64,000 nt of DNA from Fluctibacter corallii (lineage in GTDB: Bacteria; Pseudomonadota; Gammaproteobacteria; Enterobacterales; Alteromonadaceae): the NCBI RefSeq assembly GCF_025751585.1, contig NZ_JAOWKX010000011.1:1-64000 (forward strand), written 5' to 3'. A model generated the notes under the pieces. It worked only from the letters and a program-made list of their open reading frames with translations, made no database searches and was not told the DNA's origin. The translations under genes were made by a program, and so were the position numbers. Positions 38,450 through 60,852 of this stretch are shown piece by piece (within the stretch, counting starts at the first letter, position 1; the number at the start of each line of letters is the position of its first letter).

Positions 38450-38513
38450 TGTTTCCCTGAAGTCCTCCGTTCAGGGTAGTAGTTATTAAGCATAAAGAGA
38501 TTTAACAGCAAAG

Positions 38514-38543
38514 AAAAAAGGCAGATATCACTCTGCCCTTTTT
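38514..38543. terminator. Bidirectional terminator between cheD and parC
   Basis: GGCAGA (38520-38525) pairs with TCTGCC (38532-38537) around a 6-nt loop. An A-run lies before it and a T-run after it, so it works on both strands. It separates the converging cheD and parC genes. Confidence 0.88.
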
Positions 38544-38570
38544 GCTTTTCGATGTTTGTTTTTGTTAGCG

Positions 38571-40883
38571 TTAAACGGTGTTTTCTCCATCGCTTGGCGC
38601 ATCTACGTCTAACGCTTGTTCAGCGGATGCCGGTAAATCCACCTCGATGCTATCTACACGCTGCAAACCGCGAGGCAATTTGTTACCGCGACGCCCACGT
38701 TCACCTTGATAATGTTCTAAATCGGCAGCCGATAGCGTCATGCTACGCTTTCCTGCTACGATCTTCACATGCGCACCATCAGGCACCACGGCCAGCACTT
38801 TTACAAACTCTTCTCGGCTTTGTGCTTTAGCTGAAGGTATATTGATGATCTTGTTGCCCTTACCTTTACCTAAACACGGTAAGTCACGCAGTGGGAACAT
38901 CAACATACGCCCCTCATTAGAAATCGCTAAGCACCAGTCGGTATCTAAATGTTTAACCGACATCGGAGCTAATGCTTTACCACCGGATGGAATGGTTAAA
39001 AATGCTTTACCCGCTTTATTTTTGCTAACCATGTCAGCAAACTTGCCGACAAAGCCGTACCCTGAATCTGAGGCCATCAAGAAACGCTGTTCGTCATTGC
39101 CCGTCAATACATGCTCAAAGGTTTCGCCACCAACAATATTAAATCGTCCGGTGAGTGGCTCGCCCTGACTTCGCGCCGACGGCAAACTGTGAGCATCACA
39201 TGAGAACGTTCTACCTGAACTGTCTAAAAAGACAACCGGTTGATTACTCCGGCCTTTGCTACTGGCCCGATAACTGTCTCCTGCTTTGTAGCTCAATCCT
39301 TCAACGTCAACATCATGCCCTTTGGCACAGCGCGCCCACCCTTTTTCTGACAACACAATGGTGACCGACTCAGACGGCACCAGCTCTTTTTCAGACAGGG
39401 CTTTAGCCTCGTTTCGCTCAACGATAGGCGAACGTCTGTCGTCTCCGTACTTTTCAGCGTCGGCAAGAATTTCTTTTTTAATCAACGTTTTTAAGCGGCG
39501 ATCTGAACCCAGCAATTGTTGAAGCTCATCACGCTCACGCGCCAGCTCGTCTTGCTCACTGCGAATTTTGATTTCTTCCAATTTCGCTAGATGACGAAGC
39601 TTTAATTCAAGAATCGCCTCGGCTTGCTTATCCGACAACCCAAAACGCGCCATAAGTTCTTTTTTAGGCTCATCTTCATGACGAATAATATGAATCACTT
39701 CATCGATATTCAAAAAGGCAATCATTAAACCTTCAAGAATATGCAACCTTGCCAGCACTTTATCTAAACGGTGCTGTAAACGACGTACAACCGTATCTTT
39801 TCTGAATGTCAGCCACTCAGTGAGAATCACCCTTAGGTCTTTTACTTGTGGGCGGCCATCTAAGCCAATCATGTTCAGATTAACACGGTAGCTTTTTTCT
39901 AAATCGGTAGTAGCAAACAGGTGTTGCATCAGCTGCTCAATATCCACGCGGTTTGAGCGAGGGCTAATCACGATGCGGGTCGGATTCTCATGATCAGACT
40001 CATCCCGTAAGTCGCTTACCATGGGCAGCTTTTTACTTTGCATTTGCGCCGCAATTTGCTCTAGCACTTTGGCCCCTGACGCCTGATGCGGAAGCGCGGT
40101 CACGACAATCTCGCCGCTCTCTTCCTGAAATACCGCTCGCATTTTGATTGAGCCACGCCCAGTTTCGTACAATTTTTGAATATCAGCACGCGGCGTAATA
40201 ATTTCAGCTTCGGTAGGGTAATCAGGCCCTTGTACAAAACCTAACAAGTCAGCAAGCTCAGCTTTACTGTTATCAAGCAAGTGGGCGCAAGCATTGGCCA
40301 GTTCTCGCACGTTGTGAGGCGGAATGTCCGTTGCCATACCGACAGCAATGCCGGTTACGCCATTAAGGAGAATGTGCGGCAATCGTGATGGCAATACTTT
40401 CGGTTCTTGCAACGTACCATCAAAGTTGGGCGTCCAATCTACGGTTCCTTGGCCTAACTCATTCAGCAATACCTCACTGAAGCGAGATAATCGTGCTTCG
40501 GTGTATCGCATTGCCGCGAACGATTTAGGATCATCTGGGGCGCCCCAGTTACCCTGACCGTCTACGAGTGGATAGCGATAAGAAAACGGCTGTGCCATCA
40601 GCACCATCGCTTCATAGCAGGCAGAATCACCGTGTGGATGAAATTTACCCAGTACATCACCCACCGTTCTGGCAGATTTTTTATACTTTGCGGTGGCGCT
40701 TAGCCCTAAGTCTGACATCGCATAGATAATACGGCGTTGAACGGGTTTTAAGCCATCACCGATATGGGGAAGCGCCCTGTCCATAATGACGTACATCGAA
40801 TAATTTAGGTAGGCGTCTTCAGTGAAGCGACGCAGTGGTAACTGCTCTATACCATCACTGTTAATACTGATTTCATCACTCAT
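38571..40883 (-). CDS. parC: DNA topoisomerase IV subunit A
   Basis: 770 aa. The breakage-reunion domain has the active Tyr in [10 protein letters not shown] near residue 120. The quinolone region is [17 protein letters not shown] with the sensitive-type Ser. The C-terminal beta-pinwheel follows from about 490, with repeats such as [12 protein letters not shown] and [14 protein letters not shown]. It decatenates daughter chromosomes with ParE. parE is not adjacent here. Confidence 0.97.
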
Positions 40884-55452: not shown

Positions 55453-56559
55453 ATGATATCTGAACTGTTTAGCCAGCCGCTGTTTGTTTTTCTTCTGGTG
55501 ATTTTAACTGGCTACACAGTGCTCGTTATCGGCTTGATATGGTATATACGCAAGCTAAAAGCACCGTTAAAAAATGATGCCTTAAAGCCTTTCGTTACTC
55601 CTCCCGCACAACCAAATCCCATACAGACCGAACCGAGTAAAAATCGATTCATCGACAAAGCCGACGAAGCAACACGACTGAATCAGACCTTTCAGAAATT
55701 TGTTCCTAAACAATTTGTCGACCACTTTGCCAAGCATGGCAGCAGCACGCTCGAGTTGGGGCGTGCAGATGAAGATGATGTGGCCATACTGTTTTGCGAC
55801 ATTCGAGGGTTTACGTCATTGTCAGAGCGCATGACACCACAAGAATTAATGCGCTTTTTGAATTCTTATTTTTTGCGGATGAATGATCCCATCCACCAAA
55901 ATGGCGGCTTTATTGATAAATTTATTGGCGATGCCATTATGGCGTTATTCGATCACCCTCAAGGCTCAAACGAAGATAAAGCCAGAGACGCAATAAAAGC
56001 CGCGATAGACTTACACGCAGCGCTAAAAATGTATAACCAGCACCGTCAAAACAGCAACTATCCGCCAATCAATGTGGGCATTGGCGTGCATTTTGGCCCA
56101 GTGATTATCGGTACAGTGGGATCTGACGATAGAATGGACACCACTGTCATTGGAGACAGTGTCAATATTGCCTATCGATTAGAGGGGCTTGCCCCCTTAT
56201 TTAATGCAGATATTGTGGTCAGTGCCCAAGCATTAGACACCGCCAAGGCCAACGGCCACTTTTCCTATCGGCTGCTAGAGTGGGTAAAAGTAAAAGGCAG
56301 AGAAAATGCGGTTGAAATATACGAAATCCTTGATCATCTTCCCGCAAAGGAACGAGATCAAAAACTGCTTATTGCTGACGACATCAAACACGGCCTTGCA
56401 TTACGAAAACGCTACGCCCTCCAAGACGCACTTGATGTCTTCACCGCTGCACATGAAAAAGCCCCTAATGACGCCTTGGTACTCCATCATATAGAACAAT
56501 GCCGCATCATGCTCACCAAACCCACCCCAAAAACCAAAGACGGCGCCTTGAGGATGTAG
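55453..56559 (+). CDS. Membrane-anchored class III adenylate/guanylate cyclase
   Basis: 368 aa. One membrane helix (about 10-32), a short linker, and FQKFVPKQFVDHF, then a class III cyclase domain (about 108-290). Metal-binding Asp residues are in FCDIRGFTSLSERM and FIGDAIMALFD. The base-recognition Lys is in EWVKVKGRENAVEIYE, and TTVIGDSVNIAYRLE supplies the transition-state region. Lys and Asp at the specificity positions favour ATP. A C-terminal helical segment with TPR-like spacing follows. No sensor domain is visible. Confidence 0.9.
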   Translation: MISELFSQPLFVFLLVILTGYTVLVIGLIWYIRKLKAPLKNDALKPFVTPPAQPNPIQTEPSKNRFIDKADEATRLNQTFQKFVPKQFVDHFAKHGSSTLELGRADEDDVAILFCDIRGFTSLSERMTPQELMRFLNSYFLRMNDPIHQNGGFIDKFIGDAIMALFDHPQGSNEDKARDAIKAAIDLHAALKMYNQHRQNSNYPPINVGIGVHFGPVIIGTVGSDDRMDTTVIGDSVNIAYRLEGLAPLFNADIVVSAQALDTAKANGHFSYRLLEWVKVKGRENAVEIYEILDHLPAKERDQKLLIADDIKHGLALRKRYALQDALDVFTAAHEKAPNDALVLHHIEQCRIMLTKPTPKTKDGALRM

Positions 56560-56580
56560 TGCTAATTTTCACGGCAAAAT

Positions 56581-56640
56581 AAGCAGAGCGAGCTAGCGAG
56601 CGACTTCTCATTTTCAGTGACAATTTGCGCAAGGTGAGGT
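56581..56640. repeat. 60-bp direct repeat, copy 1
   Basis: Begins AAGCAGAGCGAGCTAGCGAG and ends GCGCAAGGTGAGGT. It matches the copy at 58356-58415 at 58 of 60 positions in the same orientation. It marks the left boundary of an AT-rich block of small minus-strand ORFs, 22 bp after the cyclase stop. Confidence 0.95.
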
Positions 56641-56755
56641 GGCATTGTCCACTTCCCCTAATACGACAAAGTTCTAAACTAGAGTTTTCCAGTTTCTCTT
56701 GGTTTGAATTTTAAAACTTCGGCATTTCTAGGTAACGAAATATCAAATAAACGCT

Positions 56756-57136
56756 TTAATCAGCCTCTGCAACATTGGACGGTTGCATGGATTCTTTATT
56801 CTTCAACTTTCTATTTCGAACCATTCCAAGATAAATGAATACCATTCCAACAATAAAAACTGCAGTGTTCCGTATATTTAGGAAACTAAATTCTGCGCCA
56901 GATGGGTATGACAGTGTATGAACAAAAGCAGTCCCCAAAAAGATCAAAGCAAAGCATCCAATGTATCCCATAACACCGCCTCGATAATCACAAAGTGCCG
57001 TTAACCCAATATAAAGGGCCACAGCTATAAGCATAAAAGGGATCGCGAAACTTGCACTATCTCGCAAAAAAACATTTGATACCCCACATACGATTAATAA
57101 GATTGCAATCAGGTAATTTAATAATTTGTAATTCAT
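56756..57136 (-). CDS. Hypothetical membrane protein of the accessory island
   Basis: 126 aa with four hydrophobic segments (about 5-22, 28-46, 53-71 and 85-103) and a basic then acidic tail (RNRKLKNKESMQ). No family recognised. It starts 21 bp after a GCGTTATGT sequence that resembles an attC end box but has no matching partner. All neighbours in the island are on the same strand, and AT content is higher than in flanking housekeeping genes. Confidence 0.6.
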   Translation of the reverse strand: MNYKLLNYLIAILLIVCGVSNVFLRDSASFAIPFMLIAVALYIGLTALCDYRGGVMGYIGCFALIFLGTAFVHTLSYPSGAEFSFLNIRNTAVFIVGMVFIYLGMVRNRKLKNKESMQPSNVAEAD

Positions 57137-57196
57137 ACTAGACTCTCGTGAAACATAACGCTTAATACCTCTTTTCTTTATTCTCTTTTTAGTTTT

Positions 57197-57292
57197 CTAT
57201 TCGAAAATAAAGATTGCTACAGTACATACCAATACAACTACAAGCATTGAACGCAGGTTCAAACAATATTTATGATATAGCTCAATCATCAT
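57197..57292 (-). CDS. Possible 31-aa membrane peptide
   Basis: Starts MMIELYHKYCLNLRSM and continues with the hydrophobic LVVVLVCTVAIFIFE. A short single-pass profile. No strong ribosome-binding site is visible. Included because it lies in line with the other minus-strand ORFs of the island. Confidence 0.3.
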   Translation of the reverse strand: MMIELYHKYCLNLRSMLVVVLVCTVAIFIFE

Positions 57293-57345
57293 TGCTGTCT
57301 TGAGTTCAAGTGAATAATGGCTTGTAGTTGCTACTTACTTCTGAT

Positions 57346-57471
57346 TTATATAATCCAGTTGAGGTAAGCTTTTTTCAAGCCTATCTCATCCTTTATTTTA
57401 CCTGCAATTAAGACACCACGAACACTCAGCATTAATATCAGTCCGAAGCAATTAAAAAGTAGATGTTGCAT
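57346..57471 (-). CDS. Possible 41-aa membrane peptide
   Basis: Starts MQHLLFNCFGLILMLSVRGV, giving a hydrophobic N-terminal helix, then the charged KIKDEIGLKKAYLNW. The frame is open eight hydrophobic codons further upstream without an ATG. No clear ribosome-binding site. Same strand and AT-rich context as its neighbours. Confidence 0.33.
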   Translation of the reverse strand: MQHLLFNCFGLILMLSVRGVLIAGKIKDEIGLKKAYLNWII

Positions 57472-57593
57472 AAGAACTGTTAAGAAAGCTAGCAGCTAAA
57501 TCAAGGGCAAAAATACCGCGCCTAACTTCCAAAAGTACGATTTGTTTGCCCTATGGAACAAAGTGAGCGAGTGAGCAGACTTTGATAGCTCCC

Positions 57594-58076
57594 TTACTCT
57601 GAACGTAAATTGAATCCCCACACCTCATGCTCACCACCTCTCACTGCTAGTGTGACGTATAGCTTACCAGATGTTCCGAACTTACTATTCTCTGAGAACT
57701 TGACCGGGTAAACGAGCCTGAACTGCTTCGTATCACCTTGATGTCCAAGAAATTCTGAATGACTGAAACCTCCCTGAATAATTGAATCGAAGTATTCAAC
57801 CAACTCATCCATAGTTTTCAAGATGTCCTTTTTGTCTATTTGCGCCTTAGAAGAATCACTAAATAGATCGTATACAGCATTGTAATCGCGGTCGTTATAT
57901 GCACTTACGAATCGTTCATAAAGCTCATCTCTTACATGTTTGTCTATATGTTCGGGTAGTGCATTCTTCGATTCAATTTGCGTTGTTGGTAAGGAATTTC
58001 TCTCTACCCCAAACCATATAGTTGCAACTAAATTTGCTACCAATAACACGATGATTGTTGCGTAAATACTTTTCAT
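57594..58076 (-). CDS. Hypothetical membrane-anchored protein with NTF2-like (DUF3887-type) domain
   Basis: 160 aa. One N-terminal membrane helix (about 4-23), then an alpha/beta domain whose opening ELYERFVSAYNDRDYNAVYD resembles the helical start of NTF2-like/DUF3887 folds. It closes with strands LYVTLAVRGGEHEVWGFNLR. The domain would lie outside the cytoplasm. Function unknown. AAAGGA lies just upstream of the ATG, so translation is plausible. Confidence 0.65.
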   Translation of the reverse strand: MKSIYATIIVLLVANLVATIWFGVERNSLPTTQIESKNALPEHIDKHVRDELYERFVSAYNDRDYNAVYDLFSDSSKAQIDKKDILKTMDELVEYFDSIIQGGFSHSEFLGHQGDTKQFRLVYPVKFSENSKFGTSGKLYVTLAVRGGEHEVWGFNLRSE

Positions 58077-58126
58077 AAAATCCTTTAAATTAAAAATAAG
58101 CGCAAACTATTACTTAACGGGTAGTA

Positions 58127-58149
58127 ACATAGCGGTGCCACCGCTATGT
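58127..58149. other. Perfect 9-bp hairpin inside the island
   Basis: ACATAGCGG and CCGCTATGT surround a 5-nt loop, between two minus-strand ORFs. A GTTAAGT sequence, which fits the attC end-box consensus GTTRRRY, lies a few bases downstream on the minus strand. The other end box is not convincing. It could be a terminator relic or a decayed cassette site. Confidence 0.4.
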
Positions 58150-58180
58150 AGCTGTTTCGACGTGTTTTTTTGCTTTTTTA

Positions 58181-58327
58181 TTAATTGCCACAATACCAGA
58201 ACATCCCAAATATAACCACCAGAAATACTGCGTTCACAATGAGGTTCGATTTAGAATTACTAATTTTGGCCTCCTCTTGCATGAAGCCAGAATTGTCTGC
58301 GATTTTTTCAAAATCAAAGGCTACCAC
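58181..58327 (-). CDS. Possible 48-aa membrane protein
   Basis: From a GTG start it reads MVAFDFEKIADNSGFMQEEA, then a Lys/Ser/Asn stretch, then the membrane helix LIVNAVFLVVIFGMFWYCGN. An internal ATG would give a 33-aa version. The composition looks protein-like in both halves. The start is uncertain because no strong ribosome-binding site is visible. Confidence 0.4.
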   Translation of the reverse strand: MVAFDFEKIADNSGFMQEEAKISNSKSNLIVNAVFLVVIFGMFWYCGN

Positions 58328-58355
58328 TGAGATGGTTTACTCGTATGCGCCAAAC

Positions 58356-58415
58356 AAGCAGAGCGAGCTAGCGAGCGATTTCTTATTTTCAGTGACAATT
58401 TGCGCAAGGTGAGGT
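58356..58415. repeat. 60-bp direct repeat, copy 2
   Basis: Same orientation as the copy at 56581-56640, with two substitutions in 60. The stretch between the copies is about 1.7 kb of AT-rich DNA holding only minus-strand ORFs. A shorter, looser similarity (GTGAGCGAGTGAGCAGACTT) occurs at 57563-57582. Confidence 0.95.
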
Positions 58416-58435
58416 TGAATGTCGTATGATTCATT

Positions 58436-58476
58436 TCTAACGCCGCATTGTACCAGCCTATATGATTCAACGCGGC
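58436..58476. other. attC-like imperfect hairpin
   Basis: GCCGCATTG (58442-58450) and CAACGCGGC (58468-58476) form a 9-bp stem with one mismatch and a 17-nt loop. One side is bordered by TTCTAAC, one base away from the attC end box RYYYAAC. The other side lacks the matching GTTRRRY. It lies about 200 bp from the integrase fragment, where a first cassette site would be. I treat it as suggestive only. Confidence 0.35.
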
Positions 58477-58494
58477 ATTATTGTTTTAGTGTAT

Positions 58495-58728
58495 TTATGG
58501 CTTTTTAATGACGTTAATTACCTGCTTCATAGCAGGATCTTCACCCGAAAAATAGCTCGCAGATGATAGGGATACCGGTAAATGCGGTGCAATCCATATA
58601 CGATGATCTTCAGCCTTCGAAGCCTGATGATACTGAGAAGAAATTATTCCCCAAACACCACTGTAAGGAAGCGTAAACCAACCAGCTTCACCAAGATGGT
58701 TTGACCGGCTCCCACTGGATTTCATCAT
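58495..58728 (-). CDS. Hypothetical 77-aa ORF next to the integrase fragment
   Basis: Starts MMKSSGSRSNHLGEAGWFTL and ends EDPAMKQVINVIKKP. Composition is balanced, with Trp-rich patches (WFTLPYSGVWG, RIWIAPHLP) suggesting a real or recently real protein. Its first 50 bases overlap the integrase fragment on the other strand. No ribosome-binding site is apparent and no family was recognised. Confidence 0.35.
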   Translation of the reverse strand: MMKSSGSRSNHLGEAGWFTLPYSGVWGIISSQYHQASKAEDHRIWIAPHLPVSLSSASYFSGEDPAMKQVINVIKKP

Positions 58729-58835
58729 TTATTCACTGGTATGGAAAGCGTCAACGCTCATCATTGGATGATAATTACGTTGAGCAATATCTTGAGCATT
58801 TGGCTGTAAAAGCAAATGTGCCACCACGAACATAA
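58677..58835 (+). pseudogene. Integron integrase (IntI) N-terminal fragment
   Basis: The frame contains HWISSFIHWYGKRQRSSLDD then NYVEQYLEHLAVKANVPPRT and a stop. This follows the core-binding domain of integron integrases (compare the Vibrio cholerae IntIA pattern HWI-x-x-(Y/F)IH(F/W)-x-x-K(K/R), then SL-x-D-x-x-VE-x-(F/Y)L-x-x-LAV, then a V and T). No N-terminal start and no catalytic Arg-His-Tyr domain remain, so it is a truncated relic of about 53 codons. It points away from the minus-strand ORF block, the geometry expected of intI and its cassettes. Confidence 0.75.
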
Positions 58836-58841
58836 GCTGCT

Positions 58842-58866
58842 GCCCGTTTAGCGGGGGCTCAGTTTT
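58842..58866 (+). terminator. Hairpin with T-run after the integrase fragment
   Basis: GCCCG pairs with CGGG(G)GC around a TTTAG loop and is followed by TCAGTTTTT. It stands just past the stop of the integrase relic, so the break in the gene may coincide with a rearrangement joint. Confidence 0.6.
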
Positions 58867-58989
58867 TGACAGTATCAGATTAAATGGTAACGAATCCATC
58901 TCACACTGTTAATTTCAGGCGATCCTGATCTAATCACATTAACTTTTCAAATGAGGCCAAGCAATTCAATTCACTTGACCTCACCAGAA

Positions 58990-59796
58990 CTATTTTAACC
59001 TGCTATTCATGACATTTTCGCTGTCAACGTTATGCAAGCGTACCTTACCAGAACCGTCATCAAGCAAAGTAAAAGAGGTAGCGGTATCCACATAAATATC
59101 GCCGCTAGCATCATCTACTTCTACACTTCCGGTTACCGTGCTGACATTGATGCTACCAGACCCATCATCGATAGAGATATTGCCTGTTACCACTTCAATG
59201 TCTATTGAGCCTGAGCCATCATCTAGTTTGATGTCGCCCGTGATAACGCGTAAATCTATGCCACCTGATCCATCTTCAATATCCAAATCACCTGTAATGA
59301 CATTCGCTGAGATATCTCCTGAACCGTCATTGATTTGAATATCACCCGCGATTGTTTGTAGCGCGATTTTGCCTGAGCCGTCGTGTACTTCAATATCATT
59401 TTCAATTTCATCTATATTGATGTCACCAGAGCCATCTTCAATATAGAGTTTGAACGTTGCCGGCACCACAACATCCAGATTAATCATGCGAACATCGTCG
59501 TTATCATCTATGATTTTGGCAACCAACACAGCATCATCAGCGTCTTTTCTCAGGCTCAGGCGATACTCTCCCTGCTCGGGATCATCTCCTACTAAGGTTG
59601 CCACCACAGATACATCCGTCGCTTTTTTATCGCCGCGAATAGTTAAATAACCCGCTGCTGCATCAACTCGTAAAGTAGAAAGCGCCTTGGCGTCAAGCGT
59701 CAGTTCTTGACGCATTTCTGAGTCCCATGCGTTTGCGGCCACCGTCATTGATAGCGCCGCAATACCCATTCCATAAGTCAGTAAAGTTTTCATCAT
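58990..59796 (-). CDS. Exported DUF4097-type protein with eight 18-residue repeats
   Basis: 268 aa. A signal peptide ends near ANAWD. After about 110 residues come eight 18-residue units, each of the form GxxxxDDGSGxIxxxxxT, for example GDLDIEDGSGGIDLRVIT and GDIKLDDGSGSIDIEVVT. This is the DUF4097/DUF2807-like right-handed beta-helix pattern, with one turn per unit and DDGSG at each corner. The Asp-rich corners could bind calcium. GAGGG lies 5 bp before the first of two adjacent ATGs. Function unknown. The membrane protein gene upstream is probably in the same operon. Confidence 0.82.
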   Translation of the reverse strand: MMKTLLTYGMGIAALSMTVAANAWDSEMRQELTLDAKALSTLRVDAAAGYLTIRGDKKATDVSVVATLVGDDPEQGEYRLSLRKDADDAVLVAKIIDDNDDVRMINLDVVVPATFKLYIEDGSGDINIDEIENDIEVHDGSGKIALQTIAGDIQINDGSGDISANVITGDLDIEDGSGGIDLRVITGDIKLDDGSGSIDIEVVTGNISIDDGSGSINVSTVTGSVEVDDASGDIYVDTATSFTLLDDGSGKVRLHNVDSENVMNSRLK

Positions 59797-59859: not shown

Positions 59860-60852
59860 TTATGCTGTGGGTAAATATTTCGTAATTGGCATCGGCATCA
59901 TCGCCAGTATAGTATTGCGGCTCTTCGCCCAGTATGCAGACAAAATAAGCAGTGTTGCTCCCACTAGCATGCCTGTTAAGGCGAAGCTGTAACTGACCAA
60001 ACCGTAATTTTCCAGCACACCTGAGAAGGCATAGATCAAATATACTAACGACGAGACCATTATGGCGCGGCGATCGACTGCGATAGATACCAGTGCCAAG
60101 CCAACGTATAACGCTACAGCAACGAGTGAAGCCGCTACACTCGCGTGCCCTTCTAATAGACCTAATGAAGAAAATACTGGGTGAACAATCAGCGGTGCGG
60201 CGACCAAATGAAGCCAAAACGCTACGTCGCTAGCACGGGTAATGCGCTGCGTATCTTTGCTATCCCAATACATTGCCAATGCAAACACGAGAATACCAAG
60301 TATTGCCATAATCGGTAACACGAAGTCTTCTAGCATTGGCCACATTCTAAACATAGCCCCAACAACCGCTGCGCCCACAGCGGTGATACCCGCGGCAACG
60401 GTTATTGGCACACTAAAGCGCTTCCAATGCACAAACGCAGCCACCATAGCCAGCACAGCCGCTAACAAGAGTTGTGAACTTGTCGGCGTTGGTGTTAATG
60501 TCAGCGGAATGGCTCCAACAGACGCAATAAACGCCACGAGTAAACCGATTGCAGGTAAAGCCATTCTGCGTTTACGTACAAAAAATTCTGCCAGTCCCCA
60601 CGCTAACACAGCACAAACTGTTGCCGCCAAGGTTGGAGACACGCCACCGAGCAAGAGCACGGCCGACACTAGCATTAAGCCACTTGCTATCAACACAAAA
60701 AAATCATTGAACCCAGATAGCAATCTGAACCCTTCTTCATCCGCATGCGGCACATGTCGCGTTGACGCGATAAACTGCCTAAAAGCCGCAACGGACTCCG
60801 ATGTAAATACGCGTTCTTCTACCGCTCTGTTTAAATCATCATCTGTATACAT
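59860..60852 (-). CDS. Multi-pass membrane protein, unknown function
   Basis: 330 aa. A soluble N-terminal part (about 1-45, MYTDDDLNRAVEERVFTSES) is followed by roughly ten membrane helices. The Thr/Pro loop TLTPTPTSS and several conserved-looking loops (HWKRFSVP, MYWDSKDTQRI, VDRRAIMVSSL) resemble DUF2157-type predicted membrane proteins, but the match is by general appearance only. It lies 63 bp upstream of the DUF4097 gene on the same strand, a common pairing of a membrane protein with an exported beta-helix. Confidence 0.7.
   Translation of the reverse strand: MYTDDDLNRAVEERVFTSESVAAFRQFIASTRHVPHADEEGFRLLSGFNDFFVLIASGLMLVSAVLLLGGVSPTLAATVCAVLAWGLAEFFVRKRRMALPAIGLLVAFIASVGAIPLTLTPTPTSSQLLLAAVLAMVAAFVHWKRFSVPITVAAGITAVGAAVVGAMFRMWPMLEDFVLPIMAILGILVFALAMYWDSKDTQRITRASDVAFWLHLVAAPLIVHPVFSSLGLLEGHASVAASLVAVALYVGLALVSIAVDRRAIMVSSLVYLIYAFSGVLENYGLVSYSFALTGMLVGATLLILSAYWAKSRNTILAMMPMPITKYLPTA

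What the first reader, a model, noticed from the sequence alone, without database searches (positions are those of the whole stretch)
56581..58866. Decayed integron-like island
An IntI N-terminal relic on the plus strand is followed, on its left, by a run of small hypothetical ORFs all on the minus strand, many with membrane segments, in AT-rich DNA with several hairpins. This is the geometry of intI facing away from its cassettes. Some end-box-like heptamers exist (GCCTAAC, GTTAAGT, GTTATGT), but no complete attC was found, so the array has decayed or uses an unusual site.
Basis: partly seen in the sequence, partly recalled or inferred. Interest (0 to 1): 0.72.

Follow-up and report, generated by a model that had tools for sequence, protein, structure and literature searches.

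The report
Fossil integron with surviving cassette gene
This stretch is the worn-down remains of an integron, a bacterial gene-collecting platform: a scrap of its integrase gene and at least one intact captured gene survive while the recombination sites have eroded away, which is a known kind of genomic fossil.

Summary
Window 58716-58836 (+) is a 121-bp scrap of an integron integrase gene: 83% identical to this genome's own intI, integron integrase as the only NCBIfam hit, Pfam Phage_int_SAM_4 over its cut-off. It lacks the first 30 codons and ends at a stop. The 160-aa ORF to its left (57594-58076, -) is a gene cassette by descent: 4 of 5 distinct strong relatives lie between attC sites. No complete attC survives: two covariance models built here find nothing above background in the window. 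Two attC 3' boxes do survive, both on the cassette strand: 58435-58449, the best match in all 64 kb, and 57153-57167 (rank 7), 16 nt before the 126-aa ORF. The genome holds a second intI (cut by contig ends) and at least six further places with attC sites, some eroded. So this is a decayed chromosomal integron with a retained cassette gene (NTF2-like fold, function unknown), a kind already described. A 72-bp hairpin repeat (56574-56645, 58349-58420) remains unexplained.

The parts
58716..58836 (+). intI relic: codons 31-70 of the genome's own integron integrase, in frame, ended by TAA 58833-58835
58836..58875 (+). hairpin followed by a T run directly after the relic, terminator-like
   Evidence: sequence; 58829-58885 folds at -14.4 kcal/mol
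58435..58519 (-). attC remnant A: excellent 3' (R') box GCGGCGTTAGAA within 58435-58449; 5' half not recognisable, fold no better than shuffles; full-site CM score only 11.9 bits (58436-58519)
58181..58327 (-). 48-aa ORF between remnants A and B, no family match
58110..58183 (-). possible attC remnant B before the 160-aa ORF: GTTAAGT 58112-58118, aligned with the R' boxes upstream of the cassette homologues; hairpin better than mononucleotide shuffles (z -2.5 to -3); box itself only -1.1 bits
57594..58076 (-). 160-aa cassette gene: hydrophobic N terminus (judged by eye) plus NTF2-like (DUF3887-like) domain
57512..57590 (-). position expected for the attC of the 160-aa cassette; GTTAGGC 57520-57526 (4.7 bits, chance level); site itself not recognisable (2.6 bits)
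57153..57194 (-). attC remnant D: 3' box AAGCGTTATGT within 57153-57167, 16 nt before the 126-aa ORF; rest of the site missing (6.8 bits)
56756..57136 (-). 126-aa hydrophobic protein (by eye), no homologue in 394 other family genomes or 344 other order genomes (overlapping samples); a cassette by position only
56574..56645 (+). repeat R1 (72 bp, 92% to R2), just after the cyclase stop codon; origin unexplained
58349..58420 (+). repeat R2, second copy of R1

Best explanation
The segment between the cyclase gene (ends 56559) and the DUF4097 gene (58990-59796, minus strand) is the scar of a small chromosomal integron. A complete unit once stood here: intI on the plus strand at the right, cassettes on the minus strand running left (geometry shown; former completeness inferred). 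IntI would have captured cassettes at attI through attC hairpins. The integrase gene was then cut down to about 40 codons and stopped, and the attC sites eroded until only some 3' boxes remain (shown). With neither integrase nor sites the cassettes are frozen in place; the intact 160-aa gene is inferred to be kept as an ordinary resident gene coding for a membrane-anchored NTF2-like protein of unknown function.
For: IntI identity; the relic is nearest to the own intI, then to that of the relative G031. Cassette ancestry of the 160-aa ORF: 3 strong homologues in 394 other family genomes, all 3 with attC before and after; a second search added two distinct loci, one flanked by attC on both sides (Amphritea MAG: 44.0 bits before, 15.8 after) and one not (Aestuariicella). 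Control: the own and 29 relatives' cyclase loci plus two longer cyclase loci (32 stretches) gave one attC match up to E 10, at 12.6 bits. attC 3' boxes on the cassette strand: 16.0 and 11.4 bits, best of the island's plus strand 5.8. Alignment of the box before the 160-aa ORF with those before its homologues. Low G+C. The genome is integron-bearing: second intI and attC sites elsewhere.
Against: No complete attC in the island: best 11.9 bits, which is background for 64 kb (E 1.3; one place elsewhere scores higher on both strands and another ties), and the model built from this genome's own sites lists none there. The 5' halves are unrecognisable: best 2.4 bits against a minimum of 9.0 in real sites. 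Remnants A, C and D do not fold clearly better than shuffles, and boxes B and C are at chance level on the matrix. The 126-aa and 48-aa ORFs have no homologue that shows them to be cassettes (the 48-aa ORF was not searched in genomes). One of five strong relatives of the 160-aa ORF is not flanked by attC. No relative examined shows intI at this locus.
Confidence: 0.85

Rival explanations
1. Cassettes scattered in trans plus an unrelated scrap: IntI of the second integron inserted cassettes at non-attI genomic sites, and the intI fragment arrived separately by duplication or recombination, so a complete integron never stood here.
For: The same genome has at least six places with attC sites and no adjacent intI; insertion at non-att genomic sites is mentioned in PMC12444791 (passages). 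The relic resembles the own intI closely but shares no upstream or attI sequence with it, and 29 relatives have no intI at this locus.
Against: The scrap lies at the end of the array and in the orientation expected for intI; at the other places the TIGR02249 search found no match at E<=0.001.
Confidence: 0.12
2. Unrelated intergenic debris: a stray intI scrap beside resident small genes, with attC-like boxes by chance.
For: No full attC above background; heptamer counts alone are not enriched; the 126-aa ORF is an orphan in the samples searched.
Against: 83% DNA identity to intI over 121 bp, attC-flanked homologues of the 160-aa ORF, 3' boxes beyond shuffles.
Confidence: 0.02
3. Remnant of a phage or integrative element with a tyrosine recombinase.
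For: Pfam calls the domain by the general name Phage integrase, N-terminal SAM-like.
Against: Integron integrase models are the only NCBIfam hits; no PHROG hit; nearest sequence among those compared is the own intI; no tRNA in the window.
Confidence: 0.01

Closest known systems
Pseudo-integrons (decayed intI with or without cassettes; Nemergut et al. 2008, PMC2426708)
   Same: intI destroyed by deletion and a stop codon; a second, related intI in the same genome, as that paper describes for some pseudogenes (passages)
   Different: Here only ~40 codons of intI remain and the attC sites are eroded as well
[quoted passage not shown]
   Same: Cassette-type gene(s) without a working integrase; [quoted passage not shown]
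   Different: A CALIN needs detectable attC sites (two by default); none is detectable here with the models built here, so the locus would probably be missed by that definition
Multi-locus cassette regions of Alteromonas (PMC4119200)
   Same: Marine relatives in the broad sense; cassettes at three genome places, one of them beside intI (passages)
   Different: There the region is among the most variable of the genome and the integrase is conserved; here sites and integrase are eroded

Membership tests
Integron (complete) | Full-length intI | tested here: not met
   Only about 40 codons and a stop
Integron (complete) | Integrase belongs to IntI, not other tyrosine recombinases | tested here: met
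   TIGR02249 best hit, though at 23.8 bits against a whole-protein cut-off of 265; own intI 83%. The IntI-specific patch (recalled) lies outside the surviving part
Integron (complete) | attI beside intI | tested here: inconclusive
   blastn shows no similarity of 58520-58715 to the own upstream region; attI is poorly conserved (recalled)
CALIN | Two or more attC sites detectable by covariance model | tested here: not met
   Model R1 (58 sites) rang in 41 places of two held-out arrays but gave no window hit above background; model R2 likewise. IntegronFinder's own model was not available
Decayed integron / pseudo-integron | IntI pseudogene | tested here: met
Decayed integron / pseudo-integron | Cassette-derived genes in the orientation opposite to intI | tested here: met
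   160-aa ORF: 4 of 5 distinct strong relatives between attC sites; not shown for the 126-aa and 48-aa ORFs
Decayed integron / pseudo-integron | Remnants of attC | tested here: met
   3' boxes only: 16.0 and 11.4 bits, 7 and 12 of 2000 shuffles; 5' halves and folds not recognisable
NTF2-like / DUF3887 domain (160-aa protein) | Profile and fold match | tested here: inconclusive
   DUF3887 20.1 bits, below cut-off 31.8; model pLDDT 69.7; DUF3887 structure 4hyz TM 0.49/0.64 at rank 19 by E-value

The most novel reading that the evidence does not exclude
The 72-bp repeats R1/R2 and the 97-bp tandem array at C12:279.4-280.2k are a genome-specific, possibly attC-derived hairpin element that settles directly at the stop codon of genes (TAG, then TGC...TTCACGGC, at both the cyclase and a quinone-reductase-like gene) and has helped to shape this island.
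Probability: 0.07. Interest if true: 0.55.

Novelty: new member of a known kind. Interest (0 to 1): 0.3.

Why it matters
It shows how far an integron can erode before detection loses it: no attC callable with the models used, the integrase scrap far below the profile cut-off, yet one cassette gene still open. Such scars would escape surveys that rely on intI and attC, so cassette genes turned residents may be undercounted. With attC sites in different states at several places of one genome, it is a usable example for the order of decay, but it does not change the understanding of integrons.

Tried and rejected
Rejected: phage recombinase; R1/R2 as attC sites (the models list nothing above background there; blastn finds them in the C12 tandem array but in none of the six own attC stretches compared); an unusual attC type (model R2 from 19 own-genome sites lists nothing in the island); an ancestral integron locus here (no intI by tblastn in 29 relatives' cyclase loci with about 1.5 kb flanks or in two 9-kb ones, positive control 30 of 30; in 19 of the 29 loci a gene that I call Dyp-peroxidase-like from memory lies near the cyclase, with no match in the window; in L047 and L052 it is convergent with the cyclase with a gap of about 10 nt).

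Led nowhere: the Rfam scan gave only the alpha operon leader; the DUF4097 neighbour found no relatives in genome contigs; plasmid searches with both ORFs found nothing; the 126-aa ORF has no homologue in the family and order samples, which overlap; a literature search for integron + attC + relic + decay + cassette returned no paper. The first attC finder was weak and the second had an index error and returned nothing; one search replaced it.

Limits to keep in mind: the 74 training sites were picked with intact AAC and GTT cores, so both the matrix and model R1 favour intact sites. In the core comparison 41 of the 45 rows were used (two minus-strand echoes and one chance row left out, the own C12 site moved to the own group), with 19 own sites; two weak own rows (16.4 and 12.5 bits) were dropped. 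One of the 19 (L132:4249-4371) counted as keeping GTT has a disordered end. Loss of AAC was alike in both groups (2 of 19, 2 of 41). Box C was scored one base out of register; its score in register is 4.7 bits. The shuffle test was done after looking at the boxes. The own-genome attC list is a lower bound: one search scored 150 of 703 candidates and missed the C12 site that one search found.

Full report
What was checked. The window lies on contig C2 of a 4.12-Mb, 19-contig genome that is the only one held of its genus. The finding covers the gap between a gene with an adenylate/guanylate cyclase domain (55453-56559, +) and a DUF4097 gene (58990-59796, -).

The integrase scrap. Translation of 58701-58832 hits Pfam PF13495 at 31.6 bits (cut-off 27) and, in NCBIfam up to E 1, two integron integrase models and nothing else (TIGR02249 E 2.4e-5 and NF011946 E 0.025; both far below their whole-protein cut-offs, as expected for 44 residues). 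A search of the whole genome with TIGR02249 finds three places: this one and two halves of another intI at the two ends of contig C12. The same search rings at E<=0.001 in all 14 control genomes, but over the cut-off in none, so the profile alone is not specific at low scores. At DNA level 58716-58836 is 82.6% identical to the C12 intI over 121 bp. The match starts at codon 31 and ends where the C12 contig itself ends, so the own gene cannot tell where similarity would have stopped; against the relative G031 it stops at about 58831-58844. The own intI has CAA where the relic has TAA. Among 31 integrase loci compared, the own intI is the closest to the relic, then G031. A hairpin with a T run follows.

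The cassettes. The 160-aa ORF (57594-58076, -) has three strong homologues (E 1e-40 to 4e-29) among 394 other family genomes, and three weak partial ones that I did not count. All three strong ones have an attC ending at or just before the start and another beginning between 5 nt before and 8 nt after the end of the ORF (in L121 the preceding site scores 23.4 bits, the other five flanking sites 35 to 82). A scan of named genomes returned four loci, two of which repeat these (Rheinheimera sp. A13L = L121, Colwellia sp. DT_21 = L123; judged by identical attC scores), plus an Amphritea MAG (attC 44.0 bits before, 15.8 bits after) and Aestuariicella albida (best 6.5 bits near the ORF, background). 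So 4 of 5 distinct strong relatives are cassettes. As a control, 32 stretches (the own cyclase locus, 29 relatives' cyclase loci and two longer cyclase loci) gave one match up to E 10, at 12.6 bits. The 126-aa ORF has no homologue in 394 other family or 344 other order genomes, samples that overlap; it may be a cassette by position only.

The attC question. 74 attC sites were taken from 20 stretches beside intI in relatives (17 stretches gave sites). 58 were aligned (A1) and modelled (R1), leaving out arrays L098 and L109. In those two R1 found 41 sites at 26 to 86 bits on the cassette strand, and the own site at C12:763-878 at 36.5 bits. In the whole window with filters off, R1's best is 13.9 bits at 38501-38570 (13.3 on the other strand); the best in the island is 11.9 bits at 58436-58519 (E 1.3, tied with 60460-60493; E 0.054 if only 2.6 kb are searched). 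A second model from 19 sites of this genome (R2) lists no island hit up to E 10. So no whole attC survives.

The 3' box alone does better. A 15-column weight matrix from the 74 sites gives 16.0 bits at 58435-58449 (-), the top score of the 64 kb on both strands and equal to the mean of real sites (15.7), and 11.4 bits at 57153-57167 (-), rank seven. The island's plus strand reaches only 5.8. In 2000 dinucleotide shuffles the best and second best are reached 7 and 12 times; among 231 other windows of the same size, 0 and 1 times. Against this: the 5' partner halves are not recognisable (best 2.4 bits; real sites 9.0 or more), and only the region at 58110-58183 folds better than mononucleotide shuffles (z -2.5 to -3; the others between -1.4 and +0.8). 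A box GTTAAGT at 58112-58118 aligns with the boxes before the 160-aa homologues but scores -1.1 bits on the matrix; the one at 57520-57526 scores 4.7, a chance level.

The genome. R1 finds attC sites on C15, C16, C18, C14 and at two places on C13; the list is a lower bound. In 4 of 19 own sites the GTT of the 3' box is gone, against 0 of 41 in the two held-out arrays and 0 of 11 around the 160-aa homologues (Fisher p 0.008 for 4/19 against 0/41); loss of AAC is alike (2 of 19, 2 of 41). The comparison is tilted towards intact sites, because the model was trained on them, and the groups differ in score. It fits long inactivity of the integron in this genome; the state of the C12 intI cannot be read because about 44 codons are missing across the contig ends.

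How it worked and what is left. By the established integron mechanism (recalled; see also passages) IntI recombines folded attC sites with attI. Shown here: scrap of intI, a cassette-descended gene in the right orientation, 3' boxes, loss of whole sites. Inferred: that one complete unit stood here, and that the 160-aa gene is kept because it is useful. It is full length against its cassette relatives (44 of 167 alignment columns identical in all five, the window's own included); no test of selection was made. The AlphaFold model (pLDDT 69.7, residues 1-20 below 50) resembles NTF2-like folds, with a DUF3887 protein (4hyz) giving TM 0.49 by query and 0.64 by target; the N terminus looks like a membrane anchor by eye.

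Known or new. Nearly a third of intI genes were called pseudogenes in 2008 (PMC2426708, passages including the abstract); [quoted passage not shown] clusters away from intI and intI inactivation are described in Xanthomonas (PMC12444791, passages including the abstract), and cassette regions at three genome places in Alteromonas (PMC4119200, passages). The present locus is a further, more eroded case.

Unexplained. Two 72-bp repeats lie at the left end and near the right end of the island. They share TTTGCGCAAGGTGAGG with a 97-bp tandem array at C12:279.4-280.2k; the exact 16-mer occurs 8 times in this genome, all on the + strand of the contigs, and in none of 58 other genomes. R1 and the first array copy start just after the TAG stop codon of a gene, with TGC and TTCACGGC in common. 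They are not attC by the models used.

Noticed in passing
window 56574-56645 and 58349-58420; L043 3437-4190 (G000:C12:279436-280189): Genome-specific hairpin repeat: two 72-bp copies in the window and a 97-bp tandem array beside a quinone-reductase-like gene; R1 and the first array copy begin just after a TAG stop codon; 8 exact copies of the 16-mer here, 0 in 58 other genomes.
   Followed up: partly
G000:C12:1-211 and 598368-598991 (L042, L041): A second intI runs off both ends of the same 599-kb contig with about 44 codons missing between the halves; either the contig is circular or two copies exist. Upstream lies one 104-aa ORF with an attC behind it (C12:763-878), then a seqA-like gene (name recalled).
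   Followed up: partly
L128-L133 (G000 C15:392k, C16:215k, C18:197k, C14:267k, C13:153k, C13:231k): Six places with one to several attC sites and no intI match; 4 of 19 own sites (the C12 one included in the 19) have lost the GTT core.
   Followed up: partly
window 58857-58904 and L133 6245-6292: 48 bp, 77% identical, just right of the intI scrap and near the edge of an attC cluster on C13; may be a shared boundary sequence.
   Followed up: partly
window 38500-38575: Best attC-model score of the window, outside the island (17.2 bits with R2; 13.3-13.9 with R1 on both strands); not examined.
   Followed up: no
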